Assembly: GCA_000827205.1 (NCBI GenBank)
Contig: KN832564.1
Coordinates: forward strand, 818,682 to 882,681
Reading direction: 5' to 3'
Length of the DNA: 64,000 nt
Origin: Plicaturopsis crispa FD-325 SS-3
Lineage: Eukaryota; Basidiomycota; Agaricomycetes; Amylocorticiales; Amylocorticiaceae
Position numbers and translations under genes: made by a program. Below, one piece after another: positions 1 through 20,166 of this stretch. Each line of letters opens with the position of its first letter. The stretch's first letter is position 1. Below the pieces are notes generated by a model that had not been told where the DNA came from, ran no database searches, and worked only from the letters and a program-made list of their open reading frames with translations.

Positions 1-214
1 CCTGCAAATCATTGTCTCTTGTGACCAGCTTGCTACTCTAATAACTTATTCTATGTAGCTAGACAGCGTGAGTGCAGCTCAGAGGTCCATTTTTGAGGCC
101 ATAGGATGTCTTCATGGTGCTTGACAGTGACAATTTTTGGTGGAAGAAATCAGAATTCGATCAAACCTAGCGAAGAAGAGTCGACCGACGGGGCCAATGT
201 CCTAGTCGCGTACA

Positions 215-707
215 TAGTGTTGTTGGCAGCTTTTCGCCATTTCGCCCTGCCATTCTGCCATGCCGGCAGTTGCCATCTGCCGCAAGGGTAGGTCTGGCAG
301 AATTTGGCACAATATATGCCGGATATAGCTATTTGTACGAGGCAGTGGGTCCTCGTTCCGAAGGGCACCCCGAGCAAAACTCGAACTTGACGGTGGCGCA
401 TACTTCAGCGACAAATATGGCCATAAAGCCTTTTTTGACCACACTTTGGCACCAAAACACGCTGCAAAAGCCATTCACGTGACTATTTTGGGCGAGTTGC
501 CCGGTAAAATTCCGTTTTTGGACATACTTTTGACCGCACGGGAGTTGTGTCAGAAAGTCATCCAGAGATTCTGCCCGACAGCAAAAACATCGCGGGCACC
601 GACGAAAAGCCCGAAAACAATTGTTGCAAAATCTGCCACCCTTGGCAGTTGCCGTTCTGCCGTTCTGCCGGCAGCGCAGCCCGAAAATCTTTCTGCCCAC
701 CGCACTA
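215..707. mobile_element. hAT-type MITE, about 493 bp
   Basis: The segment starts TAGTGTTGTTGGCAG and ends CTGCCCACCGCACTA. These are imperfect terminal inverted repeats of the TAGNG type usual for hAT elements. An identical 8-bp sequence, CGCGTACA, lies directly outside both ends (207-214 and 708-715), which is the target duplication length of hAT transposition. The interior has no transposase reading frame and is full of repeated CTGCC/GGCAG words, especially near both ends, as expected of subterminal transposase-binding repeats. It is therefore a non-autonomous element. The intact 8-bp duplication argues for a fairly recent insertion. The autonomous partner is not in this window. Confidence 0.78.
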
Positions 708-715
708 CGCGTACA

Positions 716-1145
716 TGCACCGTCAACGACGCGTTGCTACTTAAGTATATTCGTGACTAGAACTCAGCGTGGGCATAGCTTCATTCATGGAGTGCTGCAA
801 CATGAATAAACTAGATATAGACGCTCATGAGCATGGTTCACCATTGCCTGGAAAGCTCCGTCCGCTCTACGCATGATACATTTTGATAGAAGCAATGCTG
901 AAGCAATTGCGTGAAACAAGCCATCGTGGATGGAATTGACATCACGGAGGAATGCGCCAGGCGTGAGCGGCCACGATGATGATGGACGGACATACAACTC
1001 GGTGATGATGAATGCATATGCATACTCATTGTCCTCGTAAGTGGTCTTCACGGATGCTGTAAACTCGAGTGTCATCGGTGTATGTCCAATACTTCCAAAC
1101 AGAAATAGCGCACCGAGAAGAACGCAGAAAGGCCAACAATGACTC
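716..1145. other. Intergenic stretch, no gene supported
   Basis: Between the MITE and the 3' end of the SIKE-like gene I see no convincing coding sequence. A minus-strand frame is open here but does not look like protein and has no supporting splice structure. It probably holds the 3' UTR of the downstream minus-strand gene. Confidence 0.4.
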
Positions 1146-2128
1146 TTAGCCTGCGGAGCGTGCCATGGCTTTGTAAGTGCCGAAGGGACCCACACGGCCA
1201 GTCGGCCCACCCCGCAGCTCCTTCCCATGATGTATCGTCACGCCGGACAACGTGCGAGCGAGCGGAGGCGGGTTCTGATCCGGCGGGGGCGCCTCCAGTG
1301 GCGCTTGGCCCACCAGCCGCCGCAGGACTTCATTTTCCCGCTCCAACCGGGCGAGTTCGCACTCGCGCTCCAATGCCCAGTCGGACGCCGCCACGTTCGT
1401 CCATTCGTGCTCGTCATCACCGAGAGCGGGGCCTTCCGGGCGTTCGACATCCTCGCCGTTGAGGGAGCGCATGTAGAGGCGAAGCAGGTGGGAAATCTGG
1501 GCGAGCGACTGCGATAAGGAACTGCTGGAGGTGAGTTCTCGCGTTGCGTCAGCATCCTCGCGTTCGAGCAATTTGGTTTCGTATTCGCGGATGAGAGACA
1601 ACTCGTGCTCCTGCACCTCACGCTGTTGCCACAAAATATTAGCAAACAGAATGCGATACACCGAGGCATTGACAGACGCACAGCGCGATTGCGGAAAGCG
1701 CTCATTAGGTTGTCCAGCGTCTGCTCGTACTCCTTGATCAACGCGTTAAGCTGCTTGTTATCGTGCAGCAGTCCCTGATTTTCCGCGCTGATAGACGCCG
1801 TCATGCGTTCCAGCTCACTGTCGTATGCCTCTACGAAATTCCCTCTCAGGTCGCGTCAAGAGATAACCCAAGTGACAACTCACCTTGAGATTTCTCCGCG
1901 TTAAATCGGCGCAGCACAAAGCCCGTCTGCGCATGTATCGCCTGGACCTGTGGCACAGTATGAGAGTAGCACAGACGGGAAGCTTTATGGACTTACTTTG
2001 ACCTGGCCGGCTTGAGTGTACAGCTGCACGGAGAGCGCGCGATTGCGGCTGAGCTGCTCGCCGAGCTCTGCGATGATGCCCCACAGACGCGACATTTCCT
2101 GGTCCGCGCTGAGCTCTACGATCGCCAT
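1146..2128 (-). CDS. SIKE/FGFR1OP2-family coiled-coil protein (STRIPAK-associated)
   Basis: Start at 2128 (MAIVELSADQEMSRLWG), stop TAA at 1146-1148. Three small introns are visible: 1948-1996 with GTAAGT donor, one near 1850-1886 with GTGAGT, and one near 1634-1677 with GTGCGT. The spliced protein, of about 265 residues, is almost entirely coiled coil. A central segment, ISAENQGLLHDNKQLNALIK, followed by a YEQTLDNLMSAFRNR-like stretch resembles the conserved core of human SIKE and FGFR1OP2. A C-terminal ERECELARLERENEVLRRL helix matches the end of that family. Members bind the striatin-kinase-phosphatase complex STRIPAK; the filamentous-fungal relative SCI1 is needed for hyphal fusion and fruiting. 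The complex role here is inferred from family only. A proline-rich tail (APPPDQNPPP) follows the last helix. A different coiled-coil family cannot be excluded. Confidence 0.68.
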
Positions 2129-2415
2129 GGCGTTTGGGCAGAATAGGACAGTTCCAACTCGAAGGCTTTCTTGCTGTGAGCGTCAGCGTCAAGTTCAAGA
2201 ACGCTAAATTGCTTCATTCATTGTCAGTGGCGGAAAACAGTTCCGAGTTCCGACGTCGGCTAGCCTTGCAACCCTGGTAAGTACGAAGAAACAGATATTG
2301 CACTTTCTTGGAGGTGACAATAAGTCATTCGAGTATTGCGATTTAAAAGTGCATGCACAGATGTAGCACATGGCTATGTAAAGCAGGCTTTAAGCAAATG
2401 AACCAAGCCCACAGG

Positions 2416-5013
2416 TTAACGCGGGACGCCCGACGCATCACATCCCAGGAGCTTCATCCACACCAGCCCAATCCCATCCTCCTCGCACCCAATCTGCATC
2501 CCGTTATCCCTCAGAATATGGTACTCTCTCCCAGGCGTCTGAACGACCGCTACAGCGCGATGCAGAGGCACGCCGTTCGAGGCGGTGAAGTGGATGCTTT
2601 CGACGTGATGATGACTGTATTGAAATTCAGCGCACTCCGCGTCGTATTGATTCTCAGGACTTACGCGGGTAGGAACAAATGGACCTGTGAGACCTTAGAC
2701 GTAGCGTTGTCGGCGGAGGACGGCGTCCCCGCAAAATCCTGCTCCATCTGCGTTGAGCTCATCCACCGCCCGCTGACACTGCAATACAAGCAATCAGTCT
2801 CGGGGAAGCATGATGATGTCAAGAAGTGGCCGACCTGTTGCTCACGACGCATGCCATAACATATCGCTCTGCTACTGATTTCTTAGCAGCACCAGCGTCG
2901 TTCTCGCGCGATATCCGCTGCAACCAGACCTTGCTGATGCCCTTGTCGTATTCCTCGTGGTTCGTCCACTTCAAGCAGTCCATGAGCGGTGTACCTTGCG
3001 GCTGGTCGATGTATGCCGACCAGTCGGCCCGCAGGGGCGCGGTCTCCACAGTATCCAATCCCGAATCTGACGAGGCGGTGGGCCGTCCGATAACTTCGCA
3101 TGTAGACTCGAGGACGTAGAAGAACTCCTGGGAGTTGTGGTGCTGGACAGTGATACGCCATATCTCGCCGTTCACGATCGGTTCCACGTGAGTGACGAGC
3201 CCTCGCATCCAGTCTGAAGCGCCGCCGCCGACAGACAGCATGAACCACATGCGCGAGACAACGAACCTGTTGACGGTGGTGATCAGGCATGAATGGGAAA
3301 TCGATAAGTAGGTAGGAATATAGCACTTGCCGTAGCGCGATGACGAACTGACGTTCGTGGTCCGGGCTAGTTTGGAGATGCGCAGATATCGGATTGTACC
3401 CTTGAAAGAAGTTGACTAAGAAAGACTCTGCATATGCCTTTCCACCCAAACTGCTCTGGCGCTCGCGGTATCGCAGGTAAGGCCACATGTTGGTCATATT
3501 TTGCGGATGTTGAGCGGCTATTTGCGTGAGCCGGGAGCCAGCATACAATCGAGTTAGGAGGGGTATTGCCGAGAGGTACACTATGCACGTTTCTAAATCA
3601 GTGACAAGTATGCGATGAGGATTCCGGTTGCAGCCCACCTGCATAGCGGAACATGCGGGAAACGAGGGCACACTGCTTTCGTTCTTCATCTGACAGTCCT
3701 CCGAGGAGTATGGCCCAACGTTGTACACGCTTGCGCTGTGACATTTTGGGCGGGAGCGTGATGGGTTGTGGCGTAGGCGGCGGAGAAGCAGGAAGATCTA
3801 ATGAGTAAGACGGAGGTGCTTGCGCAGGAGCAATCTGGACAGGAATGGGCATGGTAGCAACGTTGGGTACAGCATGGGCTAGAGGTGTGGATTTCTTCAC
3901 AAATAGAGGCTTGAAGCGCTTGCCTGTTGGGGCCTTAAATAGGTTCGGGATTTGTACAGCACCAGAAGCAGGAGTTTTGCTTGTGGTGTCCGGAGAATTC
4001 ATGGCAGCGGAAACTTGAGGAGCGATGGGATGAGATACAGGGAAAGGAACAGAAGGCGTTTTGGAGAAATTCGACGATCTGGGAGTTGAACTAGACGGCG
4101 TTCCGATTCGATTTATTTGAGAAAATGGTCGCTCTAAGGTTTTGGAGGGTGCTTGCGAACGGGGGGGTGCAGTCGAGGCTGGTCCTGAGGTTTGATCGAC
4201 AGTGACATTCGGCATCAGCAAGTCGGGTTTTCGGAAGGTGGTCAGTAATTCGGATTGTTCGTTTTTCTTCGTGAGAGGTCTGGAGGACGTTTGTGTTTGG
4301 GTGAGCAAAGGCGCGCTTGCATGGGCCGGGACTGCTGCATCTAACAATCGAGGCGGTGGAGGCTCTCGGGGCATGGGCGAGTCGGCCGTCGAGTGGAGAC
4401 TGGTACTACATGAAGCAATCAGAGGTCTGGATATTGACGGTATCGAGTGTCCTGGAAGCTGGCCGACGGAGGGTGCGTGAACAAGGCCTGCTGCTGCAAC
4501 TTTCTGCTTCTTTGCAGGTGGAACCAGAGATGCGTCTGACTGTGCCAGGGGGCGCTTTTCTGGGCTGGGGATGATTGGGTTTGGAGGAGAATCCACGCCT
4601 AGAAAATCACCCGCCAAGGGCGTAGACGTTGGCAGAGAAGGTAGAGTCTTTTCCTTGGGTTTCTTTGGAGGGCGAGGTTTCTTGCTTGGGGCTGCCTTTT
4701 CGCGTGCTGGATCATTTGGTGGCCCGAAAGGAACATCGACAGACATAGCATTGGCAGCAGTGTGTGATTGCGGGTCCGGTGCATTTTCAGTATTGCGTTT
4801 AACAAGAAGGAGAGGATCGACACCAAGTTTCTGCAGCAGACCCGGCTTTGAGAGTTTGGAGTATCCAACGATGTTTCGTTCCTTGCAGACTGCTTTCAGT
4901 TGCGGGACGGTTAGCTTGAAGTAATCTTGCACTTGAGGGTCCGTAGCAACTATCGGTGTTGGCGTCACGACCAACTCGGATGCTGGCGCGTCGTCCACGG
5001 TTGGCCCCAGCAT
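2416..5013 (-). CDS. Large SAP-like domain protein, conserved-looking, function unknown
   Basis: The first in-frame ATG now present is at 5013 (MLGPTVDDAPASEL). Residues about 30-60 (LTVPQLKAVCKERNIVGYSK, then LSKPGLLQKLG) resemble a SAP-type helix-turn-helix motif, which in known proteins binds DNA or chromatin. A basic, serine/proline-rich disordered region of about 330 residues follows, with KKPRPPKKPKEK. After it comes a helical domain (QRKRVQRWAILLGGLSDEE, then YLSAIPLLTRLYAGSRLTQI) and a C-terminal globular part with ITVQHHNSQEFFYVLES. One intron at 3267-3330 appears to use a GC donor (GCAAGT). The last coding block, ending at stop TAA 2416-2418, shares its frame with the preceding exon but is separated from it by an in-frame TAA at 2695-2697. 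The 3' structure is therefore unsure: the protein may end at 2695, use an unseen intron, or be interrupted. The family was not recognised. Confidence 0.6.
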
Positions 5014-5046
5014 TGATGGTCCGTCGTCGATGTCGGAAATTTCGTA

Positions 5047-5165
5047 GACCCATTATAATGGGTTTCGCGTTGCAATGACGTTGAAACGCCGCTCCAATTC
5101 CAAGCCAGTTCATTGAGATGCCGTTGCAATGCCGAATGCTCGTTGTAACTCCGTCTGAACGTGAT
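5047..5165. repeat. Left subterminal word-repeat island
   Basis: Directly inside the left terminal repeat, the words GTTGCAATG, GTTGAAACG, CGTTGCAATGC and GTTGTAACTC recur about every 10-20 bp, on both strands. The same vocabulary occurs inside the right end (9165-9376) and not in the flanking genes. An open frame on the minus strand (from 5210) crosses it, but it reads as shadow of these repeats. Confidence 0.5.
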
Positions 5166-5270
5166 TTTAATCAAAGATAATGAAGCCTTGTACTCGTCCG
5201 TCGTACTCATTCCTCCTCAACGCTGTGAATTGCTGGGTAGCTTGATAAATCACATGTATAACGAATCGCG

Positions 5271-6648
5271 ATGACCCCCCCCCCACTCAGGACGAGACCT
5301 TGCCCCCATTTTTGAGCATCAATGCGAAGGCAGCGGCGGCACCCGAGAAATCGTGTAGGGCAAAGAAGGATTGCGAACCCCCACACCACCACAGTCGTAC
5401 AGTAATGTACACTCTTAGCGAGAGGTACAGTAGCCTGCATTCACTACACGAGCTGTCGGGGGCTGCGGAAGGATGCGGCAAGGTGCCGTCACTTCCGAGC
5501 CTTTCCCAATGATATGCGGCGCTTCGTGGCCATATGCGCAGATCTAAAAATCACGTTCGCACCGTGACTGAACGACAAGCACGGTCAGATGGACCACAGT
5601 AAGCTCATTGCAAAGTTGACAAAGTGCGTCGTTATATTTTTTTACTCCAATCATCCAGGTTTGACTTTGTATTTGCATTGCAGCGCCTGGACATGCAATG
5701 TTCTTCTTGAAGCGCGCGTATTCACCGCGCTCGTCTCAGAGGCGCCACTAATTGTGCAGGTCAGCTTTCAATTTTTACTCTATTCATTTCCTATCGGGGC
5801 GGCAGCGAAAGTACGGACGTCCGACCCTGGACGGCGGAAATCGTCGCGGTCTCTGTATGACTCCTTTTATGATGCCCGCGAACCGCCTCACGGTCTTTCA
5901 GCTTCGAATCTGTTGTTTGAGGGCCCTCAGTGCGACGACTGGCGCGCCCGATGCCGCAGCAGGACCCGCAAAAAAGCAAAGTGAGAATCTTTCCGCCAAG
6001 TGTGTAGTGGGATTACACAATGTACGTGTTCACGTCCAAGACAGTCGACCAGTACACGTCGAACGTCTTCGATAACTCGGATCCATTCCCGTACTACTAC
6101 ATGGACGAAGATTATACTAACTGCTCGCTCACAGAGAACAACGAGGAGGACATAAAAGACCAGCGCACACACTGCGGTGTCCTCAGGCGGCACTTCGACA
6201 CGTTCAGGAACCGGTTCGCGCAGCTCAAAAGCCAAGGGCAAGGAGCCTCAAGCGGCACACATACGGTGAGCTCCCTTTTCTCAAACTTAGCCATCCAGTC
6301 TGTTGACACCTCGCAGAGCCTCGGCCCTCGAGCAGAAAATGCTCTTATAGCTATTCTCCAACTACCGGAAAGGTTCTGTGTATCCCTCGTGCCACGATTC
6401 GGCCAGAATGGTCAGCCGCCGGCTACTGCTCGACGACGACAAGTTTTTCCACAGGCGTTGCTCCGTTTCCAATCGCCGGAGATAACGGAGAGGCTGACGG
6501 TCAAGGACGACTCAAGGAGGCCCTTGCTCTCTCTTTTAGATATTCCTCCGCCGCCTCCACTCATTCAGCAGGTACGAGGTCAAGCATGTACCGCTCTCTC
6601 TTTATTCTTGTTTAGCAGTTCTGACACATTTCTTCTTTCCGTGCCCAG
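5271..6648. other. Region between left element end and OSH remnant; possible decayed coding sequence
   Basis: A run of cytosines lies at about 5275-5285. From 6020 a plus-strand frame (MYVFTSKTVDQYTSNVFDNS...) stays open for about 80 residues with protein-like composition, ending in an arginine-rich LRRHFDTFRNRFAQLK helix. It is followed near 6460-6550 by a second protein-like patch (SPEITERLTVKDDSRRPLL). They may be upstream exons of the OSH remnant or another captured gene. I recognise no family and do not call a gene. Confidence 0.25.
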
Positions 6649-8646
6649 ATTCCGCCGAACCGCTTTACCAGGTCAAATTGCTAGCCGCTCTGCGCAGTGG
6701 TACGTCAAGCCTCTGCTCATGTCTCGTACAAATCAAGACACACGGAGCCAGGTGATCCTGCGCTCATCCATCCATTCCTAAGTAAGTATAGGATTGCTTA
6801 TTCACTGTCTCAGCGCTGACCGCGGACGCAGCTGACGCCGTGGCGCTCCCGCTGTCCCACCGCTCTATCTCATCAAGTAAAATATACACAGACACCACAC
6901 CACTGCACCTCGCCACCTCGCTCGGCCGCGTAGATCAGTGAGCTTGATGCTCGACTAAGAATGCATCGACAATACCCTGAAGATTTCCGCAGACGGGCCT
7001 GCAAAGAAGTAGCCAAGGGCAAAGATGTCCTACGCGCCATCGCAGGTGCGTACTTCTGCCGCGACGAGAATACGCAATGACGACTCACGCACCCACGTGC
7101 AGATTCCCGCTCCCTGCTAAACGTGTCTTACTAATCGCACCTGCAGACCTATATCCATTCCCCGCCCACCGCACCTCCCAATCTTGCATTTCTCGCGCTA
7201 CTCGACTTTACCCGCATGCGATTCGTGAATTTGTATCTCGACAACGCGATGGGGTCGTCACTGCTCCACAAGGCTGCAAAGCGCAAGAATCTACAGCTGA
7301 TCAAGCTCCCTGTGCGCGCAGGTGCGGATGTGTTTGTGCGCGACCGCAGTGGGCAGATGGCTTACGACGGTGTCCCGAAAGACGATCGTGTGTGCGTATT
7401 CCTCCGGCAGTGTGAGTAACTATTTCAAAAAGCCTGCCGAATGCAAGATCCTCATCCTATACAGTTGCGTACCACGACCCGACACCTATCGATGCGCCTA
7501 TATCCGAGAGCCGCCAGCACTGAAAGGCTATCTGAACAAATACGTGAATGTTGCCCGCGGACACTCGGTGGTTCATGCTCAAAGGCCGCGCCCTCTCATG
7601 TTAGTCCTTGGTTCCCATCTCGCCTCCCGCTCGCAATTCCACTAACGCACTTACACATGCATGCTCACAGACTACCGGAACCAGAAAGACGAGTCCGTCT
7701 CGATATCGATGAAGACGGCCGTGCTCAAGGTCGCACCAGGCGGCGAAAAGCTGTACCTCGAGGTGCGCTCCGAACCGTGCCTCGCCCGGGCATCAGTCCG
7801 TGCAAAGTGGCACATGAAGGCGAGCCACCCCATCGAAGCGCGCCGCTGGACACGGGCGATCGGGAAGAGCATCGACTGGTACAACCGCGAGCGCGAGGAG
7901 GAGCACGTGCACATGAGTGGCGACAGCGACGCGAGCGGGCTGGAGGCGGCCTCAGGCTCCCTGTTCCGCTCGGGCAGCAGCGCGGTCTTGAGGCGGAGCG
8001 CGGGATCGCACGCGGAGGATAGTACGGGCGAGACGGACGGCGATGCGAGCCTGGTGATGAATCATTCGGGCAGCGACTCGCACGAGGACGACGCAGAGGA
8101 GAAGAACGACGAGTCGTCCGACGCGATGTCCACCCACCGCGCGCCCCCGTACGACTCCACGTTCGAGCTGCAGGTCAACTCCACCACCGCGCAAGTCGAG
8201 CTTACCTCCCAGCTGCTCTCCGACCTGGCTCCGTCCGCGAACGCGCCCCCGCGCGCGCACGAGGTCAATCCCGCGATCAGAAACTTGCTCGCGATGGTGC
8301 AGGGGATCCTGCACGACTACATGGTGATGTGCAAGGCGCGCGAGGTGTGTTGGCATGCTGGAAGTCGACGCTGCGGCAGGAACGGCAGCGGCAGGTGCTC
8401 TGGGAGGAGAGCCTACGCACGGTCGTCAAGGGGGGAAGGTACTCGAGCAGGAGCTGCGCGACCGCTCGCGCAGGCGCGAGAGCCGCTTCCTCGCGGCGAG
8501 CGAGAGCGGGATCGGGACGCTGAAGCGGCGGCCGCTGAACCTGCCGCTGTCCTCGTTGGACGTGCGCGAGTTGGGCGCGCAGGAGCCGCAGTCGTGCTTC
8601 CCCGCCGTGCAGGCGTCTGCGTCTCCCGCTACCACGCCCTTCAGGG
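6649..8646 (+). pseudogene. Decayed OSH1-type oxysterol-binding protein (ankyrin + PH part only)
   Basis: OSH1-like proteins shuttle sterols and phosphoinositides at membrane contacts; full forms have ankyrin repeats, a PH domain and a C-terminal ORD lipid-binding domain. Here ankyrin pieces are visible (LYQVKLLAALRSG joined by an intron to DPALIHPFL; TTPLHLATSLGRVD; ACKEVAKGKDVLRAIA; LLHKAAKRKNLQLI). They are followed by PH pieces (GYLNKYVNVARG; DTRWFMLKGRALS joined to YYRNQKDE; KWHMKASHPIEARRWTRAIG) and an acidic linker. Several frame changes (near 7510, 7560, 8350 and 8435) and a stop near 6959 break it. Introns are kept (for example GTTAGT...CACAG ending at about 7671), so this is a DNA copy, not a retrocopy. 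Homology stops at a splice donor (GTAAGG) at 8647, and no ORD follows. It lies inside the 5031-9392 element. Confidence 0.72.
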
Positions 8647-9012
8647 GTAAGGGTGACACTTTGCGGACTGCCTCCTCATATTGCATTCACCTGTTGGATG
8701 TTTGGCGGTCCTTTGCTGCGCGTTGTATCCCGTGCACTCTGCTATCGTCGCTCACCTTCTCCCGTTTCTCTAGCAGGATTTTGCCATCCAATGATTCCGC
8801 TATTCGTGCATGACTGGAAATGCAAGTAGTAGTACTACGTGTGCCCGCTCTACTAAAATTCAATGGAAATGACGGGGTTTCCGGACTATAATAATATGGA
8901 TTGTGTTGTTTGCTATTGACCTTTGCGCGCGAGCAGCGCCGTGCAAGGGGCAGGGCGTTATAATTATAATAATAGGGGTGGTTTCTTCCTATGTGGATCC
9001 GAGAGTCCTACT

Positions 9013-9115
9013 AGTTATATGGCTCTCTGGTAGAGCGGTTTTGAGCACCACTTGTATTCTCAGTACTTCATTATGTAAGCTAGTTGTATGCGCGAGTTCG
9101 AATCCCCCTTGTTCC
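9013..9115 (+). repeat. tRNA-derived relic (SINE-like pol III promoter)
   Basis: TGGCTCTCTGGTAGAGCGG at 9020 is a near-perfect A box with an intact D-arm, and AGTTCGAATCC at about 9095 is a near-perfect B box. The two are about 74 bp apart, longer than in most tRNAs, and the would-be acceptor strands (AGTTATA and CTTGTTCC) do not pair. This is therefore not a working tRNA gene but a tRNA pseudogene or SINE head. Confidence 0.45.
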
Positions 9116-9164
9116 ATAAGTTTCTGTGTCCACCACTTGGTCTGGGTCTAATAGTCTGATTAAG

Positions 9165-9376
9165 ACCGGTTGAATTAGAAAGGGTCCATTAGAAAGGACC
9201 ATCATAATATTTTCGCTCCCAGTCAGTAAGATTCGAACTCCGAAAGTCTCATTGTAATCGCATTGGTACGAGGATTGCAACTCCGATTGTAATGTGCGTT
9301 CAAACTTATCTCCTTCATTCAAACTCCATTCCAATTCAGACAGGGGTTTTCCATAATAATGCCATTAAAATGGGTC
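9165..9376. repeat. Right subterminal word-repeat island
   Basis: This segment repeats CATTGTAATCG, GATTGCAACTCCG, GATTGTAATG, TTCAAACT and TTCGAACTCCG words on both strands up to the inverted repeat at 9376-9392. Its vocabulary matches the left island at 5047-5165, which is the main support for pairing the two ends. Confidence 0.5.
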
Positions 9377-9392
9377 TAAAAGATTTCCGACA

Positions 9393-10146
9393 GACACCGT
9401 CCATTGCGCTGTGGCAGAGAACAAGATGAATACGTTGAAGAGGCAAGCAGACAAGTTTTTGGTGCGATCGCTGTTGAACGTTGAACGTTGAACACCAAGT
9501 GAGCCCTGTGGCGGTCCGGGACTGAGTCTGGAGAGACGCGTCGAAAGACGCGCCGAGTCCCGACCCCGACGTTGCTTCGCGATAATCTTGCAATTACTTA
9601 ATATTGTGCCGTCTTCAAAACCGTCCACGTACTAAGTACACTGACATATGATACTAAGTACCAACATACTACTACCTCTTGGAGTGCACTACACGCACCT
9701 GAAAAATCGTATCAAGGACATGTGCGCATGTCTTATCCCAATCTTATCCGCAACATCAAACAAACCCAGACGTGTTGACCTGATTCAGGGAACGCAAGGA
9801 GCAGACTTCGGCGCTCAGTAGCGCTAGAAATACATTGAATAAAATTACACAGAATAATTTATGCAAATGCCGTCTAGGATAACATCTATACCGTCCAAGT
9901 TAATTGGCAGCCGCAGGGATATGCAAAGTTGAGAGAGAGAGTACCGTCATGGTCCGGGGTTGTGATCCTCTGTCTCCGACGCAGACTCCGTTATCTTCTC
10001 GTTAGACCTTCCGATTCTCGATCTTGAAAGATGGTCAGTAAGCTTCCGGTCGGTGATATGTCAATAACTCACATTCTTTTCCTACTATCCTTCATCCTGG
10101 ACCAGTCGGTCGCGTTAGGTCACCACAGCGACAATGAGAGAGAGCC
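9393..10146. other. Non-genic stretch with microrepeat and nested hairpin
   Basis: No gene is supported. At 9472-9492 there is a GTTGAAC triplet repeat. At 9513-9565 a strong dyad forms: GGTCCGGGACT pairs with AGTCCCGACC, and inside it GCGTC-GAAA-GACGC makes a stem with a GAAA tetraloop (9538-9551). A minus-strand ATG at 9402-9404 followed by GACGGTGTC may be the displaced original start of the SAP-like gene. The remainder up to 10146 is the downstream region of the Mug190-like gene. Confidence 0.4.
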
Positions 10147-13100
10147 TTACCATTTGACAGTTTTCGGTGTTTTCGCCTTCCCAGGTTCCTCCGCCAGCTT
10201 TGCGTCCATACTTGCCGCACGTTGGTGCTTGCCGAGTTTCCTGGCCAACCATCCCTTGCTTGCATTTCCCGCATGTTTGTCGTCCGTATGGCTATCCGAC
10301 CAGCCGGAGGATTCATTCAGAGACGTCCAGGAGGACCGCCTTGAGGTAGGCTGAGACGCATTGGGTGTTCGCGGCGTATGCGAGGGCGAGGGAATGACAA
10401 AATTGGTCTTGCTGCGCTGCTTTGATTGTTCCAGAGCGTTGTAGTCCCAGGCTCGAAATTCTGGGTCGTGATAAGAGTCGTGTAATAGAGAATATGAAAT
10501 GTCTTACCTTCTACGCTGTCGCTCGCTTCATGTGTAAGCAAATTGCGATGTAACGGAGAAAGGCCCGGCTCAAATGTCATGTCGATTTCGAGGGTGCTGA
10601 CTGGACGGGAGAGTTCGGTTTTATGGTCGTCGAGAGGACACCACTTGGTCTTCCTTTGCGGTTGAGCTGGCTGCTTTTTCGGCCCTACCCATGTGATATC
10701 TGGAAGACCACCAAAATTGTTCTGGGCAAGGAGAGAAAGATTGTGCGCATAAATCGACGAGCTAATCGTGACGGGCTCCCCGTCTACCACAGTAGAAAGC
10801 CAGACAACAGCCTCGCCCAGCACAGAGTCATTGGTGTCACAGGTCACCCGGAACACCGCCGCATCCTGGTGACGATGTAGAACAGGGATACGCAGAGGAG
10901 GATCCAGCGCCCACGAGCAGTCGAAAGTTGAAGGTGAGGATAATTTCGAGTCTGCGGGAAACGTCATAGCCGTGGCCGAGCCGACCTTTGCTTCGACTTG
11001 AAGGGTGATGTCTTTTGGTAGATCCTGCGCGCACAGACCACTGATAACCAAAGTGCCAATGTTCCATGACCTGAGGGACGGCGGGATCGATATCGCAACC
11101 GATCTGAATAGAACAGAGAGTCGTATTCGACCATATCCTACACCTCCGGTCAGCGAATGCCACAGTGTTTTCTGGCTTCGATCCTGCAATAAGTCGGACA
11201 GGGGAGATGTCACAGTTCCGATGATTGCGTCGCGATCTAGAAGGATGTCAGTACGCTCGGTCGAAAAGAGGATGCGAATGCGACCATATACCTTTCTCGC
11301 GGGCTTCCATCACAGTGATGTCAATCCTAGCAGTAGTCCAATCGCGACAAAACACCTCGCATGCTGTGCAAAATAAGTCGCTGTTGAAGCCATAAGATGG
11401 AATAGAACATACAGGCATTGATGTATGGTGCTGCAGATAACTTTTTGAGCCGAGTATTGAAGATTTTCTCGTCGTTCACGAACTGGTCGACGTGTCAATT
11501 GATTGCATAAAGTACTTTTCTGACGCACTCACAACTTGACAGTACGTAGAGGGTGGCGGCTCGTTCGTTCGCTTGCGAGAATTCATTGCACCTCGTATGG
11601 TGGGGATTTCCAGATTGGCTAGCTGATGAATCTGAATCGCTAGTATACCGGAAGGCAGTTCACGGTCAGGGGCAGTAAGTGATCCAAGCGCGTCCTTGAT
11701 TCTCTCCGAATACAGACCAGCACGACTGATCGCCTCTCCGTTGCGATTGAAAAGGATGGGCTGCCTACGATGAGGCAAATGCGCATCCCCTGGTTTTTCG
11801 ATGTCGCGCGGCGAAAGCGGAAAGAAGCCTATGGAGAAATTGATTTCGCCTTGCGGAATAGGACGCCTATGAACCTGTACAAGAGGTTTTCTGTGCCGAT
11901 GTAGCTTGCTCGGCAGCTTGAAGAGGTCTTCTAAAGAAATCTCAGCTCGACCGAGTGCACTGAAAATTCTGTCAGTAAACAATTTCTAATCGTTCTGAAC
12001 TGCTTACTCGTCGGCATTTACGCCATCTGAGTCCCACACGGTGAGATGGACTTCGTCCCCGTCATCCCCGTCATCCGGCATGACTCGAATGAAGCATGCT
12101 TCCTCGAAGTGCGAATGCCCCACATCATTGCGAATTACTCGAGTTGAATAGCTGAAAGGGAAGCGGTCAGATGGTGGATCAATTTGCTCTGTGGCAGCAA
12201 ATATACGGACAGAGGCTGTTCATAAGTTACTGTCAGTGCACCTTCAAGTCTGATAGCACGATGAACAAACCTTTCCAAACTTAGCCAATCCTACTGAAAC
12301 GTATCCATCGCTCTATAAGCGGCAGAATTTAGTATGGGGAGAGATACGTTTTATCGACGACATGTAACATTACCTTGGTTTCTACGTCGGGGCCACGCAG
12401 ATCGGATGTGCAATGGACCACAACGCAAATGACACCAGTAGAGTGCGTGGTGAGATTTACATCGCTTCCCTGCAAGGCAAGCCATCAGACGATGTCTGCT
12501 TGGCACATATACAGAGACTTACGACGAGGAGCTTAGAACAGTCTAGCGAATACCATTCGGGATAAGTGAACGTCCTAAGGACATCTCGGATTGATCTCTG
12601 CACAATGTGGCTGAGGATAGGCACATTCATTAGATCTGCGGCTGAGTGTTAGCGTTTCGTCACGGGAATAGAGAGAGGGCTCTACCGATCGTGGAACGAA
12701 GCGGCTTCGCAACGACGGATATCTCAGGTAGATGAGGAAACGCTATGAATGCATGTCTTGGGAAGACGTGGCGTCAGCGATACGATGTAACACCTACAAT
12801 ACAACACGTACCTAACGAAGGGTGGATCAGATATTAGTTGTATGCGCATGCGCACTCGACCTATCGCGCCTCGAAGCTCGACCAATACAGGTAGATCGAA
12901 AGAAGCGAATTTCTTTCCTAGAGCGAAATACGCCACGAAGTGAGTGTTGGACGCCTTTGGAGCAGGGGGCGGTAGCCTGCGGTAAGAAAATTCGACCTCA
13001 AGGGACTTCATGCATCATGAGTGCTTACTTCCACGGTAAATGACAAGAGAGAACATACTATAAAATCGCCCTCTTCGTGTCGTCGCGCACCGCCGATCTC

Positions 13101-14174
13101 TACCGAGTCGGGCAGGATTTTCACCGACAATATCCTTAGGGCATTCGAACCAAGGTCAAGGTCTTCAATACGGACGGAATGGACTATAGCTGGAGACTCC
13201 TTCTTGATCGTATCTTCAAGGAGATCCATTAGGGAAGCGAATAGGTCGGTGTTGAGTATCGGCCATATTTTCTTCAGTATTGAATTTATCCATTCGGAGC
13301 TTTCTCCAGCACTTTCTGGACTTTGCTGAGATATAGATGTAAATGAGCTTGAAACATATGGAGTAATTGTGAATATTCACAAAGGCTTCGACCCGTCGGC
13401 GGTCCATACTATAAAATGTTGATATGAAAATGCAAACTAATACTCTTGACGAGATTCTTACTTACTGGGCCAGAAAATCGTCCTTGAGTCCCTCCGTTCG
13501 TCGTCTACATGGCTCCCATGATTAGTCACTTGATTCGAGAGATGTCCAATTAGCGACATACCTCAGTGCAAACGCAGCCACAGCAACAGTAACAACGCTC
13601 CAGGCAATGTTTGCACGGAGAAAATTGAAAATGGCAACTACGGCGGCTGTTATACATAGCCCCACGACAACCTGTCCATTCCACGTATTACTTCGCTTCG
13701 TTCCAAGCACCCGCTATGGGTGGTGCCTACCTGTTCCATGCTCTTCTCATGATACTGCAAGGAATGGATGAGGATTATATCAACGGGAGTTGAGCTCGCA
13801 CACACCTGAGTGATGGGATGTACAATTTGAGCGGACGGGTGATGAAGATCAGTATTTAAATTTATCGAGCTCGTCTGTGACTTTGTACTGCAGATGTAAA
13901 CCGGTCATTCTCACAGACGCGCCATATCCTGACCGTCGAGCTTACCGAGTTCTCTGAGGATGATCACTGAGGTCGGCACGTCATCTCACCGATTAGTTCA
14001 TAAGCGAGATTGCAAACGTTACAGAACTCACCGGCCTTCCAAGGTCTCTCTCAGCTGCTGCTCCCACTGCTGTTCATGGTCCGATCCATCTCCATCGTAC
14101 AGTGGCGTGTCGAGAGGTGTCGATCCGAGTCCTTCGTTGAAGTGGACCGCATTTGTGACGTCGGAAGTCGACAT
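10147..14174 (-). CDS. Mug190-like SMP and multi-C2 domain membrane protein
   Basis: Start at 14174 (MSTSDVTNAVHFNEGLG), stop TAA at 10147-10149 (KTPKTVKW). Many short introns. Order of parts: an acidic N-terminus; a membrane segment (QVVVGLCITAAVVAIFNFL and following, near 13600-13700); an SMP lipid-transfer domain (SSEWINSILKKIWPILNTDL, then FASLMDLLEDTIKKESPAIV, about 13000-13400). The first C2 domain (near 12000-12500 and 11800-11980) includes an acidic loop, DDGDDGDEVHLTVWDSDG. A second C2 starts at GILAIQIHQLANLE and continues to RDAIIGTVTSPLSDLLQDR. A C-terminal tail (WDYNALEQSKQRSKTNFVIP) ends in charged helices. SMP-C2 proteins such as tricalbins and S. pombe Mug190 tether the ER to other membranes and move lipids. 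The role here is inferred. The family call is firm; orthology to Mug190 is likely. Confidence 0.78.
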
Positions 14175-14472
14175 TCCATTGAGACTGGTTCAAAAACGCG
14201 TAATGCTTGTGGTGGTACGCATTCAAGCGCGCTATGGAAGTAGCGTTGCGCTGTAAACCCGCCGTCCGGAAGGGCAGGCGCACGTCACTCAGTCTCATGT
14301 GATATTGATTTCGGCTTCGACAGGAAGCATGACAGGATGAAGAGATGTCCAAATGCTGCAAATGCAATCCAAATGGAGCACGAAATCATTGATGCGGTGT
14401 TGTTTGGTTCCAAAAAATGTGCCAAACAACGCTCGATATCTTCCAAACCCAGAATAGTGAAATGGTCAGAGA

Positions 14473-15831
14473 TTATCCTTTAGTACGAATCCAATCACCA
14501 ATGGAAAAATTGAATACACTCCTCACAGACCCTACTTCACCTAGTTTCCTTGCTCTCGCCTTCCTACGCACGTTTGGACGGCGCTGTGTAGCGAGAGAGT
14601 CGTCACCAGTTCGGTCGCCCATCAAGTATGGAGCTAGCTTGTGTAAGCGAGGTCCGGCTTGGGGAGGGACGGCGACCGAGTTTTGCACGGCAGGCATGTC
14701 GCCCACGATTTGATGAGGACCGTCGAGATACATGTCCTCCATATCGACATCTTCATCTGCTGCTGGCCGAGTAGACGCTGGCCTAGCATGCAAAAGAGGC
14801 GAAGGCTGCCGGATGCTCGCGGCCACCTCCGTAGTCGGCGAGATTGTCACAGTGTGTGACGATAGGTGGCTTGCATGAGTGAGTTGCGAGCCGCTCGCCG
14901 GAGACACGTTTGTAGAAGGGTGTCGAGCTTGGTTCATGTTACTTCCACTTGCGTGTGGTAGAGACGGCGAATGAGTCGTCGCAGGTGGTTCGGAATCTCG
15001 GGCTAGTACCTTCGAAGGACGTCAGTACTTGAAAAATATTTAAGATGGAGATATCGTGCTTCTTTCGCGGGCGCTGTTACCTTGCGTTTTGACACTTTTT
15101 TCGCTATCCGGCGATGCTCGTCTTCTTTGGCAGGAGCCGTGACATGCGTATCAGCCGTAGAAAGACCTGGTTCTGACTGATCGGTCTGTGCCTGAGATGA
15201 GAAGGACGTAGAAATTCTTTCTGGCGGTCGGCCGAAGCGAGACTGGTTTTGCGTTGATGTGGGAGGAGCTATGTCGTTGGAGGAAACTGTCCGTGGCATC
15301 GGTAATGCATTTGAGACGGAATCTCGGACAGTATGGGCATTAGAAGCGAATTCATTGGCGGACGAAAGGGGAGCTTGCGGATGGGACTGGGCAATTGACG
15401 TGCGCGCAGGCGGTGAATGGTGAGTGTGCGGTGGCCGTGTCACACCGCCGAGATGCTCCTGAGGTTTTGCGGCCTCCTTCGCTTTGTTCTTGGCCTTGCG
15501 ACGGCATCGACACACCCATGATGATAGCCCATGGTCCACGTCATTTCTGTCTTCCGAAACATACTAGCATCAGTATGACAAACCCTGGTAGATATTGCGC
15601 GCTCATTGTACTCACTGGTTGCCTTAACCAATGCTATCAGTTCCACTTCTTCAACAGGAGGAATGTGGCATCCTGGAATAGATTCGTCGCATCATTCGAA
15701 TGCTGAACAGCAAGCGGCATCGAGGAGAGACGCGTACGGTGGTGCCACGACTTGCCACAGTCCGCGCAGGTGAGAATGAACGCCTGCGGGCTGCTGTTTG
15801 TCCCCTGGCATCGATGACACTTCTGAGACAT
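14473..15831 (-). CDS. PHD-finger protein
   Basis: Start at 15831 (MSQKCHRCQGTNSS); an upstream in-frame ATG at 15861 is possible. The zinc ligands form a PHD pattern: CHRC, CADC, then CGKSWHHRC (C-x4-H-x2-C) completed across an intron, and WVCRC at the end after a second intron. Such fingers usually read histone H3 tails. The remainder is a low-complexity, basic and proline/serine-rich region (KAKNKAKEAAKPQEHLGG; KKVSKRK) and a short acidic stretch (DEDVDMEDMYLDG) near the C-terminus. It ends FSIGDWIRTKG, stop at 14473. At least three introns (GTACGC, GTGAGT and GTAACA donors). A nuclear chromatin role is inferred from the finger. It is divergent from the permease gene across a 488-bp promoter. 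Confidence 0.7.
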
Positions 15832-16319
15832 GGGTATTGCGAATATCGTATATTGAGGCAACCTCGTTGACTCTTAGACTCAAAGAGTCAGCGCACTGGA
15901 ACGTTTCTAAGTACAGGCTTTCTTGACCGCCGGGCCGTTTGGGTTTTGAACGACAAGGAAATCCGAAATCCGATCATTGGTTAAAAGCTCCAGTTCTTCG
16001 TTTCCGCCTGTTTCCGTCCCCTTTATCATCGAATACCGCCGTACGACAGCACCTTATCGCGGCAGAAGGTGTGCTCTGAGGTGCTCGTGCGTAGTCAGAT
16101 ATCATCCCGATATCTGACGCTATGGATTTTCAATTTACCCGTATGATCAATTTGTCTATGAAGGAGCCCCTGATTCACCATTTTGTGTCGCAAGCTCGTG
16201 CTCGCGATCTAGCAGCACGCATATTCACAGCGACGCGCCGTATAAAATGACAATGCTGCATTTTTTTGCCCGTCGCTATTCCTTTCGCTGGAATATCTCA
16301 TCCCCCGCTCCGTGCAAAC
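15832..16319. promoter_or_regulatory. Divergent promoter with perfect 10-bp inverted repeat
   Basis: This intergenic stretch separates the PHD gene (minus) and the permease gene (plus). At 16094-16118 GTCAGATATC and GATATCTGAC form a perfect dyad around a 5-bp ATCCC spacer. The half site contains GATA. It may be a dimeric factor site; GATA factors regulate nitrogen permeases in fungi, so a link to the permease is possible but unproven. No other element is evident. Confidence 0.4.
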
Positions 16320-18569
16320 ATGTCCGAGTCTCGTTCTCGTTCAGGCTCCGAGGTCAAAGTGGCTGCGGACGCTTCGCCCACGGAAACACGAAATGCAGAG
16401 GCCGGCGCCGCAGAAGACCGCGATGAATTACAAATGGTATGTGAGAACGTTTAATGGAGTTTAGCCTTTAACGTTGGAGGGCTTGAGCATTGCTTGGCCT
16501 TGCCAAATTTTTGAATCTGTGTATCATATCTTTATTTGGCAATTCGCGCTACTGACACTCGGAAACCACTCCGCAGGAAAAATTAGGCTATAAGCAGGTT
16601 CGTTCGTCCTTGTACTTTCCTGTCTATATGCGCGACGCTGATGGGATATGATAATAGCAACTGCATCGCTCTTGGCATCTCATCGAGAGCTTCGGGGCTA
16701 GTTTCTGTTCCATGAATTTCATTGGCACTGTCCGGTATGAAGTCCTTCATCACGATCCCTTAGCCTTCCCTAAAGGCGTATTGAACAGATCAGGCCTATT
16801 TCTCGGACTGCTCGCAGGAGGACCAGCTGCAATTTGGTAAATCACCAGCCTATCTATTCTCGTACCAATACTAACGAAAACCCAGGTCGTCATATCTCAT
16901 CACATGGGTATTCATGGTCCTTACGTCTTTCGTCCTCGCGGAAATTTGTTCTGCCTTGCCTTTGAGCGGATCCATATACATATGGGCTGCGGAAAGTGCT
17001 GGTCCCAAATATGCTCGATTCATTGGGTTCGTAGTAGCCTGGTGGGCATGCACTGCATGGATGACGTTCGCCGCAAGTACCTGCCAGGTGCGCTCTGTAT
17101 GGGTTGTCAATGTTAGATGTTCGCTAACAATCATGAATATAGACCAATGCCAACTACATCGTCTCTCAATTCTACGTCTGGGACCTGGACTTCCCCGGAG
17201 GAGTTGGAAACGACAATGTCAAATGGAGGACGTTCATCTGGATCATTTCAGAGGCTCTGCTTCTAATATCGGTCGGCCTCAACTACCTTCCTCCGAGGGC
17301 ATACACAGGCGTCTTCAAATTCACGATCGCGTTTATGCTGTTTGACTTTTTCCTTTGCGTCATTTGGCTCCCCATCGGCGTTCACAATACCTACGGCTTC
17401 AGGTCGGCCAGCGAGGTCTTCACCCTGACAAGTACGTTCTCCATCTTACGCCTTCTGAACTGGTCTCACGCATAGTCCTCAGATAACGGAACTGGAGCCC
17501 CTGCTGGCTGGAACTGGATTTTATCCATGTAAGTAACTCATCTATGCGCTTGACGGGCTTCACTGACCGGCACATAGCCTGTATTGCTCTTACACTTTGA
17601 CCGGTTTCGATGCGTCCGGACATGTCGCCGAAGAAACGAAGGACGCCAGGTATATATCATCGTCCTCTTCTGCTGCAAACCCCGCCTTAACGCCTTGCCT
17701 AGTCATGTTGCAGGAAAGGGGATAGTCAGCAGCGCCGCTGCTACCGGATTCTTCGGCTTCGCCACCACGGTCCTCTTTCTATTCTGTACGCCCAACCTCG
17801 ACACGATGTTGGCCTTAGATGCACCACAGCCGTTCGTCCAAATCTACGCCCTTGCACTTGGCCGCGGACCCAGCATCTTCATGACGATCATCGCCGTCAT
17901 CAACCTCATTCTCAACACGTCCGTGTCAATTGTCGCGTCGTCCCGCCTTGTATTCGCGGTTGCGCGCGACGGAGTGCTCCCGTTCTCCTCGTGGATCGGA
18001 CAGGTCACCCCAACGGGCCAGCCGCGGAACGCGATCACCGTGATATACGTGTTTGGCGCGCTCATCCTGTGCACCATCCTCCCAAGCCAGGTCGCATTCA
18101 CGTCACTCGTCTCCGCGGGCGCGATCCCGACCATCGCCGCCTACGCGCTGATCTCACTTTTGAGGCTGTTCATGACGCCGAACGACTTCCAATCGTCCCA
18201 TTTCCGCCTGGGGAAGCTCGCGAAGCCGTTCTATGCATTGGCGGGCGCATGGAATTTGCTGGTCTTGGCGGTATGTACATGCCCCCGCGGTTGGAAATGA
18301 AACTGACAATGCGTCTGACGTTTAGGTCACGGCGTCTCCGTTTTTCTTCCCCGTCACTGCGGACACTTTCAACTTCGTGAGCACTCTTCGTGCATATGCA
18401 TACACCTCTCCAACTTACGCATATGCATACACAGGCCAGCGTCGTCTTCATCGCCGTATCGATATTTGGCGTCCTGACCTGGTACTTCACGCCCGAGGAC
18501 AAATGGCTGCGCCGTGAAGTCGTGCTCCAATCGTTGGAGGCAGCTGATGAGCCGGAAAAAACGGATTAG
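16320..18569 (+). CDS. Amino acid/GABA permease (APC superfamily)
   Basis: Start ATG 16320 (MSESRSRSGSEVKVAADAS), stop TAG 18567-18569. The spliced protein is about 540 residues with roughly twelve hydrophobic segments, the expected size for fungal APC transporters. Diagnostic pieces are SFGASFCSMNFIGTVR, GLLAGGPAAIW, SGSIYIWAAESAGPKYARF, and the LTGFDASGHVAEETKDA motif, which is hallmark of the GABA/choline permease branch. NTSVSIVASSRLVFAVARDG lies in a later helix. At least eight introns. It sits in the plasma membrane (inferred) and imports amino acids, GABA or choline; the substrate cannot be told. The soluble N-terminus is acidic and serine-rich. Confidence 0.85.
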
Positions 18570-18875
18570 ACAGATGCTGTGACTTCAGGCTGACATATTC
18601 TATCCTTCTTATACTTATGGCTGTATCTCCCTACCTATTATTGTTTACTATAGAACGCCCTACGGCGCTCCCTGCGGCCACACGTACCCAAAAATATAGA
18701 TGTCGATAGGGCCGATGTCTAAATTATACGTCTTCAAGCATGTCGACCACTTCGTCAAGGACGTGGACAGCCTGGATGCTTACATTGAGTATACAAAGCG
18801 ATTGCCAATAAGCAGCGAGCAGCGGAGGGTAGATATGATACAGAGTTTGCCGACAATTTTGGAGGGTTGTGCATA
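18570..18875. other. Convergent 3' region
   Basis: Short intergenic stretch between the convergent permease and capping protein genes. It presumably holds both 3' UTRs. A plus-strand frame at 18700 is not supported. Confidence 0.4.
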
Positions 18876-20166
18876 TCATGCGCTGCCAAACACTCCTTTG
18901 CTTGCCGCGAGCTCGGCGCCTAATTTATAGCCCAACACCTACGCAAAGCATGTAAGTCCAATAGGTTGTCACAATGGAAGAGAAACTCACCTTATCCCAG
19001 TCGATTTTCTGCCGCGTCAGCGGCAGTGCTCGTCGCAGGCCCTTGAACGTTTTCTCGCCCATCTCCTGATATGTGTCGTTCAAGGACGACTGATACTTGC
19101 CTTCCTCATCTTCGATTAGGGCGAGGATCTTGGATGTGGATGCGGAGGGCGAAGAGGTAACGATAGCCGAAGGGAGGGATATCGAGATTGTGTGCGTTGT
19201 GGATAATTGAACCTGTGAGAATCAGGTCAGGCCGGCTGTTTCCTTCGTTGCAGAGTAAAAAAATGGAACAGAGGATTTACGTTTCCTTGCTCGTAGTAGT
19301 GGACGTTGACCAGGATCTTGCCATGTACTTGGTTCTCATCTAGGTCAACAGTATATTCCGATCGCCATCGCCCAGCCCTGAGAAAGAAAAGTTATCGCTT
19401 CAAAAACCCTAGAGTAGATATATAGCGAGACGCACCAGTAATTAGAGGGATTATACTTGTTGGCGACGACTTGGATGATGAATTTGTTCGATCCACGGAC
19501 AGCGAAGACGGACGCAACACCGTCGTGGTAATGCTCTGCTAGGTACGCAAGAGCAGATGATTCCAAGGCAGCTCTTGACACGAACTGATGTCACCGAGAC
19601 AATCTATACGGATGCATGTAGATAAGTACCTAAATGGCTCAAAGTCGGAATCTGGTTCGACTGTCTCTGGATCCGATGCTTCCTGGTGTGCACACTCTCA
19701 GATCGGTGGACGATGCAAGTCGCGGGCGCGTCACATACCAGACTCAGGTGATCGAAATGATAGCTTTGCTTCGACCTGGGATCCAGAAATCGCTCGTCTT
19801 GCCCCTCTGCTATCGGCAACCGCGCGGCTTCACTGACAATTGTCTTTCGAACGCGCAACACCATGAGCGTAGGCGGGGGCATCGCGCAGTGCATTAAGAC
19901 ACACCTGATGACCGGCACCCGGTACCTCTACGGTTGTGAACTGGGCTACATTGTACTCTTTCAATGCGGGAAGGACACCATCCTGGAGCGAATCATCGTC
20001 TGATATTATGGTGCGCACGTCTAAACCACGGTTACGCGTTGAAATCAGTGTGCGCCGCCGTATACAGAGTCAAAAGCAGCGAACCGTTGAGAACATCGTT
20101 GATCTCGCCGGGCGGCGACTGTAAAATGAAGCTGGAAGCAGCTTGTATGCGTTCCGCGGGGTCCAT
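18876..20166 (-). CDS. cap1: F-actin-capping protein subunit alpha
   Basis: Start at 20166 (MDPAERIQAASSFILQSPP, then GEINDVLN), joined across a 66-bp intron to DVRTIISDDDSLQDG, an exact CapZ-alpha N-terminus. Later exons give VISEAARL, FLDPRSKQSYHFDHL, NKFIIQVVANKYNPSNYW, WRSEYTVDL and GKILVNVHYYEQGNVQLSTT. The C-terminus reads TFKGLRRALPLTRQKIDW, then DKVLGYKLGAELAASKGVF, stop TGA at 18876-18878. With the beta subunit it caps actin filament barbed ends in patches and at hyphal tips. About six introns. Length, about 280 residues, is normal. The beta partner is not in this window. Confidence 0.92.

What the first reader, a model, noticed from the sequence alone, without database searches (positions are those of the whole stretch)
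5031..9392. 4.36-kb inverted-repeat element that seems to have captured an OSH gene (Pack-type transposon)
Two 31-bp end sequences (TGTCGGAAAT...TAGACCCATTWTAATGG) face each other at 5031 and 9392, each followed inward by an island of the same short words. Between them is no transposase but a decayed ankyrin-PH part of an OSH1-type gene with introns kept and cut off at an exon end. Gene-capturing CACTA/Pack-MULE elements look like this in plants; in basidiomycetes they are little described.
Basis: partly seen in the sequence, partly recalled or inferred. Interest (0 to 1): 0.8.

Follow-up and report, generated by a model that had tools for sequence, protein, structure and literature searches.

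The report
Transposon carrying a broken gene piece
A 4.4-kb jumping-DNA element, without an enzyme of its own that could be recognised, sits at the start of a fungal gene and carries a decayed piece of another gene; its ends match a known mushroom transposon group, so it is a probable gene-carrying ("Pack"-type) element rather than a new kind of system.

Summary
The core observation holds. Two 31-bp inverted ends (27 of 31 matching) lie at 5031-5061 and 9362-9392; no such pair arose in 10 of 10 random 20-kb sequences. Both flanks carry GA. Joining them with one GA kept gives a continuous 480-codon host reading frame (weak SAP hit, minus strand), so the element seems to have landed at about codon 4. 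TGT..ACA ends plus a 2-bp target duplication are what a 2025 paper gives for PlavakaA, CACTA-related transposons of Agaricomycotina (passages). No transposase domain was found in six frames. The cargo is a decayed ankyrin-PH gene fragment: weak Pfam hits, the PH one only on typed pieces with X at breaks, and introns whose removal keeps the frame. The OSH1 name fits the domain order but is unproven: no ORD, no parent, no OSH-named PDB hit among those shown. No genome, allele or second copy was available. Subterminal "words" are only modestly supported. Verdict: probably a non-autonomous, gene-carrying PlavakaA-like element, a new member of a known kind (Pack-TIR).

The parts
5029..5030 (.). left copy of the putative 2-bp target-site duplication (GA)
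   Evidence: flank letters printed; identical to 9393-9394
5031..5061 (+). left terminal inverted repeat, TGTCGGAAAT...; the 16-bp palindrome ACCCATTATAATGGGT (5048-5063) spans its inner edge
   Evidence: palindrome
5062..5181 (.). left subterminal zone with 3 RTTGYAAY words (5069, 5123, 5142)
5182..6019 (.). unassigned interior; no Pfam domain
6020..6265 (+). open coding-like exon of unknown identity, followed by a GT..AG intron (6266-6316); may be a second captured gene or a 5' part
   Evidence: no Pfam hit, only chance-level PDB hits, low-confidence fold of 6017-6262
6653..7411 (+). decayed ankyrin part of an OSH1-like gene, with introns at 6700-6751, 6782-6831, 7046-7102
   Evidence: Ank_5 E 2.3e-4 (below cut-off); Ank E 1.2e-4 on typed pieces (above cut-off); introns
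7465..7910 (+). decayed PH domain (intron 7412-7464 before it, intron 7600-7670 inside it)
   Evidence: PF00169 E 6.6e-5, just below cut-off, on typed pieces with X at breaks; splice joins keep the frame
7911..8646 (+). coding-like stretch following the PH domain, last recognisable coding before GTAAGG
   Evidence: frame reading; no Pfam hit
8647..9241 (.). unassigned stretch with a tRNA-like box pair at about 9020-9107
   Evidence: not called by ARAGORN, no Rfam match at gathering score
9242..9361 (.). right subterminal zone with 3 RTTGYAAY words (9251, 9274, 9286)
9362..9392 (-). right terminal inverted repeat
9393..9394 (.). right copy of the putative 2-bp target-site duplication (GA)
3598..5030 (-). 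host reading frame (weak SAP-domain hit) whose start region is interrupted
   Evidence: SAP E 0.0071, below Pfam cut-off; joined-flank frame of 480 codons

Best explanation
A non-autonomous TIR DNA transposon of the PlavakaA type (a CACTA-related lineage reported from mushroom-forming fungi). It carries a piece of genomic DNA from an ankyrin-PH (OSH1-like) gene, introns included, and was inserted by cut-and-paste with a 2-bp GA duplication near codon 4 of a host gene with a weak SAP-domain hit. Shown: the ends, the shared GA, the restored frame, the absence of a recognisable transposase, and the decayed cargo with introns. Inferred: that it was moved by the transposase of an autonomous PlavakaA element elsewhere, and that the cargo was copied in during repair or replication (template switching / gap filling) within an older element. 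The left end places an in-frame TAA (5053-5055) upstream of the host frame, so the host protein, if still made from this frame, would probably start at Met10.
For: Inverted ends 27/31, no such pair in 10 of 10 Markov sequences. GA on both flanks; of the 8 overlaps tried (0-7 bases removed), two (2 and 5) put an ATG in frame with the gene, and one of these (2) is the overlap where the flanks actually share bases. Joined frame of 480 codons. PlavakaA described as 2-bp TSD and 5'-TGT..ACA-3' (PMC12730594, passages). No transposase domain in six frames. Ank and PH hits. Removing the introns at 7412-7464 and 7600-7670 joins the ankyrin part to the PH part in one frame, with stops left in it. RTTGYAAY: 6 of 12 window hits lie in the two 120-bp inner end zones, and 0 of 10000 shuffles of those zones reach 6, but the word was chosen after seeing the ends.
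Against: No other copy, autonomous partner, parent gene or empty allele could be examined. A 2-bp match is expected by chance about once in 16. The upstream flank (128 bases) is open in all three frames, so openness alone is weak; the host gene might really start at Met10, making this a 5'-UTR insertion. Shared subterminal 8-mers are no more than chance (769 of 5000), and the word learned on the left is not enriched on the right. The PlavakaA fit rests on termini and TSD only. PH is found only on typed pieces, and no OSH-named chain is among the 60 best PDB matches shown or the 9. A transposase broken up by introns or decay could escape the six-frame scan.
Confidence: 0.72

Rival explanations
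1. The element inserted here first without the gene, and the OSH-like piece was filled in later at this locus by repair (transposition-independent gap filling), so the cargo itself never moved as a unit. This differs from the best explanation only in when the cargo came in.
For: In 100 animal genomes single-copy Pack-TIRs are said to be mostly generated this way (PMC8277862, passages). No second copy of the ends is in the window.
Against: Of those animal cases 56.9% lie within 15 kb of the parent. No ORD domain turned up among the 29 of 54 ORFs of 150 aa or more outside the element that were given to Pfam; 25 were not scanned, so this is weak.
Confidence: 0.3
2. A TIR element of another superfamily with a 2-bp duplication (for example a TA-type such as ESTA, PHISTA or a mariner relative), not PlavakaA.
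For: No transposase found, so classification rests on ends only.
Against: The shared bases are GA, not TA, and ESTA and PHISTA have TA duplications; TGT..ACA plus 2 bp is the stated PlavakaA pattern.
Confidence: 0.12
3. Two unrelated end fragments (solo ends of different insertions) flank an ordinary decayed OSH-like pseudogene by accident.
For: Only one copy seen; subterminal similarity is modest.
Against: Ends are opposed, alike at 27/31, directly bordered by GA, and the outer flanks join into one reading frame.
Confidence: 0.05

Closest known systems
PlavakaA transposons (CMCT clade; Kojima 2025, PMC12730594, passages read)
   Same: TGT..ACA termini and 2-bp target duplication; Plavaka families were reconstructed from Agaricomycotina
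Pack-TYPE / Pack-TIR elements (plants: PMC8903248, abstract start in listing plus a term search without hits; animals: PMC8277862, passages)
   Same: paired TIRs around gene DNA, no transposase recognised
   Different: those two sets are from plants and animals; the PlavakaA-like ends; copy number and parent untested here
Gene-capturing Helitrons of Pleurotus ostreatus (PMC4289320, search listing only)
   Same: gene fragments carried by a transposon in a basidiomycete
   Different: Helitrons move by a rolling circle (listing) and have neither TIRs nor target duplications (recalled)
TET/JBP-carrying Plavaka (PlavakaB, PMC12730594, passages)
   Same: Plavaka element with an extra captured gene
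   Different: those belong to PlavakaB with CATCA..TGATG ends, and the cargo is a TET/JBP dioxygenase gene

Membership tests
PlavakaA DNA transposon | 5'-TGT..ACA-3' termini | tested here: met
   ends TGTCGG..CCGACA; definition from PMC12730594
PlavakaA DNA transposon | 2-bp target-site duplication | tested here: met
   GA at 5029-5030 and 9393-9394; frame restored when one GA is removed; single site, chance about 1 in 16 for the match alone
PlavakaA DNA transposon | Plavaka transposase (autonomous copies) | tested here: not met
   no transposase domain in six frames; so at most a non-autonomous member
PlavakaA DNA transposon | terminal sequence shared with an autonomous copy | not testable with these tools
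   no host genome held; supplementary sequences not readable
Pack-TIR / Pack-TYPE element | TIRs on both sides of non-transposon gene DNA | tested here: met
Pack-TIR / Pack-TYPE element | parental gene copy elsewhere in the genome | not testable with these tools
   no genome
Canonical CACTA/EnSpm | CAC..GTG termini and 3-bp duplication | tested here: not met
   TGT..ACA and GA; definition
Pack-MULE | 9-11-bp target duplication (recalled) | tested here: not met
   only 2 bp shared directly outside the ends
OSH1/OSBP family (cargo) | ankyrin repeats followed by a PH domain (recalled order) | tested here: met
   scores weak: ankyrin passes Pfam's cut-off in one model on typed pieces only, PH is just below it
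OSH1/OSBP family (cargo) | C-terminal oxysterol-binding (ORD) domain | tested here: not met
   no such domain in six frames of the element; expected if truncated, so the name rests on domain order; no OSH-named chain among PDB matches shown

The most novel reading that the evidence does not exclude
A multicopy Pack-type family built on PlavakaA ends shuffles host gene pieces in mushroom-forming fungi, in parallel to Pack-MULE/Pack-CACTA in plants; this copy also carries a second, unidentified gene piece (6020-6265) and so would be a two-gene chimera whose insertion re-set the start and promoter of a host gene.
Probability: 0.25. Interest if true: 0.6.

Novelty: new member of a known kind. Interest (0 to 1): 0.4.

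Why it matters
Gene capture by TIR transposons is described in plants and was reported from 100 animal genomes in 2021 (PMC8277862). In basidiomycetes the capture papers that appeared in my listings concern Helitrons and TET/JBP-carrying elements. A PlavakaA-like example with a target duplication, an interrupted host reading frame and intron-bearing cargo gives a starting sequence for testing whether this lineage shuffles genes in mushrooms.

Tried and rejected
The 31-bp end searched as a pattern gave 0 hits in viral contigs, and a shorter form gave 0 in genome contigs. A protein piece of the cargo (7676-8341) gave 30 pattern matches but no confirmed relative in genome contigs. Genome contigs holds bacteria and archaea and viral contigs viruses, so the misses say little about fungi. 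A text search for the 10-base end gave 50 papers; of the 20 listed, none is about a fungal transposon by title (one is on a piggyBac system in a fly).

A tRNA gene at about 9020-9107 was suspected from A- and B-box-like letters (recalled motifs). ARAGORN found none, with or without introns. Rfam gave no match at gathering score and one far below its gathering score (E 0.19).

The exon at 6020-6265 was checked against Pfam, PDB sequences (best E 0.14) and a single-sequence fold of 6017-6262 (mean pLDDT 57.5, too low to search further). Identity unknown.

RIP-like mutation was considered as the cause of decay; CpG is not depleted in the element (observed/expected 1.16 against 1.05 for the window).

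PDB matches of the ankyrin pieces are mostly designed ankyrin proteins (60 of 282 shown, 60 of 94), so they do not help to name the gene.

Fungal Pack elements in print: the listings (3 of 3 papers; 20 of 20; 10 of 11; 12 of 13; 20 of 359; 6 of 18; 12 of 19) showed no title or abstract start on Pack-type Plavaka elements. The library lacks most subscription journals; Catoni 2019 (PMC6379663) is not held. PMC10853768 mentions Pack elements only in its reference list. PMC9674265 was seen in passages and not used.

Full report
What was checked. The finding names two inverted end sequences at 5031 and 9392. The repeat finder returns them as its longest inverted pair in 4500-10000: 5031-5061 and 9362-9392, 31 nt, 87% complementary, that is 27 of 31. 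A scan of all ungapped 31-base pairs in window 1-20000 at up to 10 kb distance gave only this pair at 26 or more matches (three one-base registers of it), and none in 10 of 10 first-order Markov sequences of the same length. The inner half, TAGACCCATTWTAATGG, occurs at both ends; with up to 3 mismatches the only further hit in the window is its own palindromic partner at 5050-5066. The 10-base outer end has only these two exact hits in 64 kb, though hits with up to one mismatch (4) are at chance level (mean 4.06).

Borders. The bases directly outside are ..GTCGTCGA and GACACCG.., so both flanks carry GA. On the minus strand the left flank belongs to a reading frame with a weak SAP-domain hit (E 0.0071, below Pfam's cut-off). 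Of 8 overlaps tried (0 to 7 bases removed), only removal of 2 or 5 puts the upstream ATG in frame with it, and 2 is the overlap the letters show. The joined frame runs 480 codons, MDGVDDGPSMLGP... Cautions: a 2-bp match arises about once in 16 by chance, the 128 bases of upstream flank are open in all three frames, and the frame also has a Met at codon 10, so an insertion in the 5' UTR is not excluded. In the present state the frame is closed by a TAA inside the left end (ORF 3598-5052; letters).

What superfamily. Kojima 2025 (PMC12730594; [quoted passage not shown] the families were reconstructed from Agaricomycotina. Both terminal features are met here. EnSpm (CAC..GTG, 3 bp), ESTA and PHISTA (TA) and hAT (5-8 bp) do not fit (same passages); MULE (9-11 bp) is set aside from recalled knowledge. 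No transposase domain was found when all six frames of 5031-9392 were scanned against Pfam with stops as X; the only hit up to E 1 was Ank_5, E 0.0096. A transposase split by introns or decay could escape this scan.

Subterminal words. RTTGYAAY occurs 12 times in 64 kb, 6 of them within 120 bases of the inner edges of the ends; 0 of 10000 shuffles of those zones reach 6 (largest 2), but the word was picked after looking. Tests without that choice are modest: shared 6-mers 22 against 8.9 expected (16 of 5000 random pairs as high), 7-mers 8 against 2.4 (105 of 5000), 8-mers 2 against 0.63 (769 of 5000); a word learned on the left alone has one hit on the right, as have 147 of 1700 background segments.

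Cargo. The stretch 7135-7416 hits ankyrin (Ank_5 E 2.3e-4, below its cut-off). Typed pieces with X at the breaks hit Ank (E 1.2e-4, above its cut-off) and PH (E 6.6e-5, just below its cut-off); the unjoined frames 7421-7642 and 7646-8647 gave no Pfam hit. PDB matches of the PH piece are 9 weak hits, E 0.004-0.03, three of them the ceramide-transfer protein CERT (deposited as collagen type IV alpha-3-binding protein, the synonym is recalled); those of the ankyrin pieces are mostly designed ankyrins, and no OSH-named chain is among the 60 shown in either. GT..AG introns lie at 6700-6751, 6782-6831, 7046-7102 and 7600-7670 and 7412-7464 (first base corrected). Splicing in silico at 6700-6751 gives AEPLYQVKLLAALRSGDPALIHPFL, and at 7412-7464 and 7600-7670 it gives one frame from the ankyrin part into the PH part, with four stops left in it: one near 7132 and three in 7521-7547. 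So the piece looks like genomic DNA, not a copy of an mRNA, and has decayed. Ankyrin followed by PH is the order of OSH1/OSBP (recalled); the ORD that defines the family is absent here, and no parent could be searched, so the name is probable, not proven. CpG is not depleted, so the decay does not look RIP-like. Another coding-like exon at 6020-6265 with a following intron (6266-6316) has no identifiable relative.

Mechanism. Shown: ends, shared GA, interrupted reading frame, no recognisable transposase, decayed intron-bearing cargo. Inferred: mobilisation in trans by an autonomous relative; cargo acquired by template switching or gap filling. [quoted passage not shown] Which applies here depends on copy number, which I could not determine: no genome is held for this window, and the viral and prokaryote collections gave nothing, as expected for fungal DNA.

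Context. Elsewhere the window shows ordinary genes: amino-acid permease, isocitrate lyase, Prp8, GST, GRASP and Kre6/Skn1-like. No transposase or ORD domain was found among the 29 of 54 ORFs of 150 aa or more outside the element that were given to Pfam (ORF list; scans); 25 were not scanned.

Novelty. Pack-TIR elements are known in plants and animals; Plavaka elements are known in fungi. No paper on their combination appeared in the listings. With one copy and an assignment based on termini and TSD, this is best called a new member of a known kind.

Noticed in passing
window 9020-9107: tRNA-like letters (TGGCTCTCTGGTAGAGCGG .. GCGAGTTCGAATCCCC) inside the element near its right end; possibly a decayed tRNA or tRNA-derived SINE, not called by ARAGORN or by Rfam at gathering score.
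   Followed up: partly
window 6020-6265: Coding-like exon (MYVFTSKTVDQYTSNVFDNSDPFPYYYMDEDY..) with a following GT..AG intron, no recognisable relative; may be a second captured gene.
   Followed up: partly
window 5048-5063: Perfect 16-bp palindrome ACCCATTATAATGGGT across the inner edge of the left end; the right end has only a partial form.
   Followed up: partly
window 10317-11309, minus strand: C2 domain of a Mug190-like gene (E 2.6e-7) upstream of the interrupted SAP-like reading frame.
   Followed up: no
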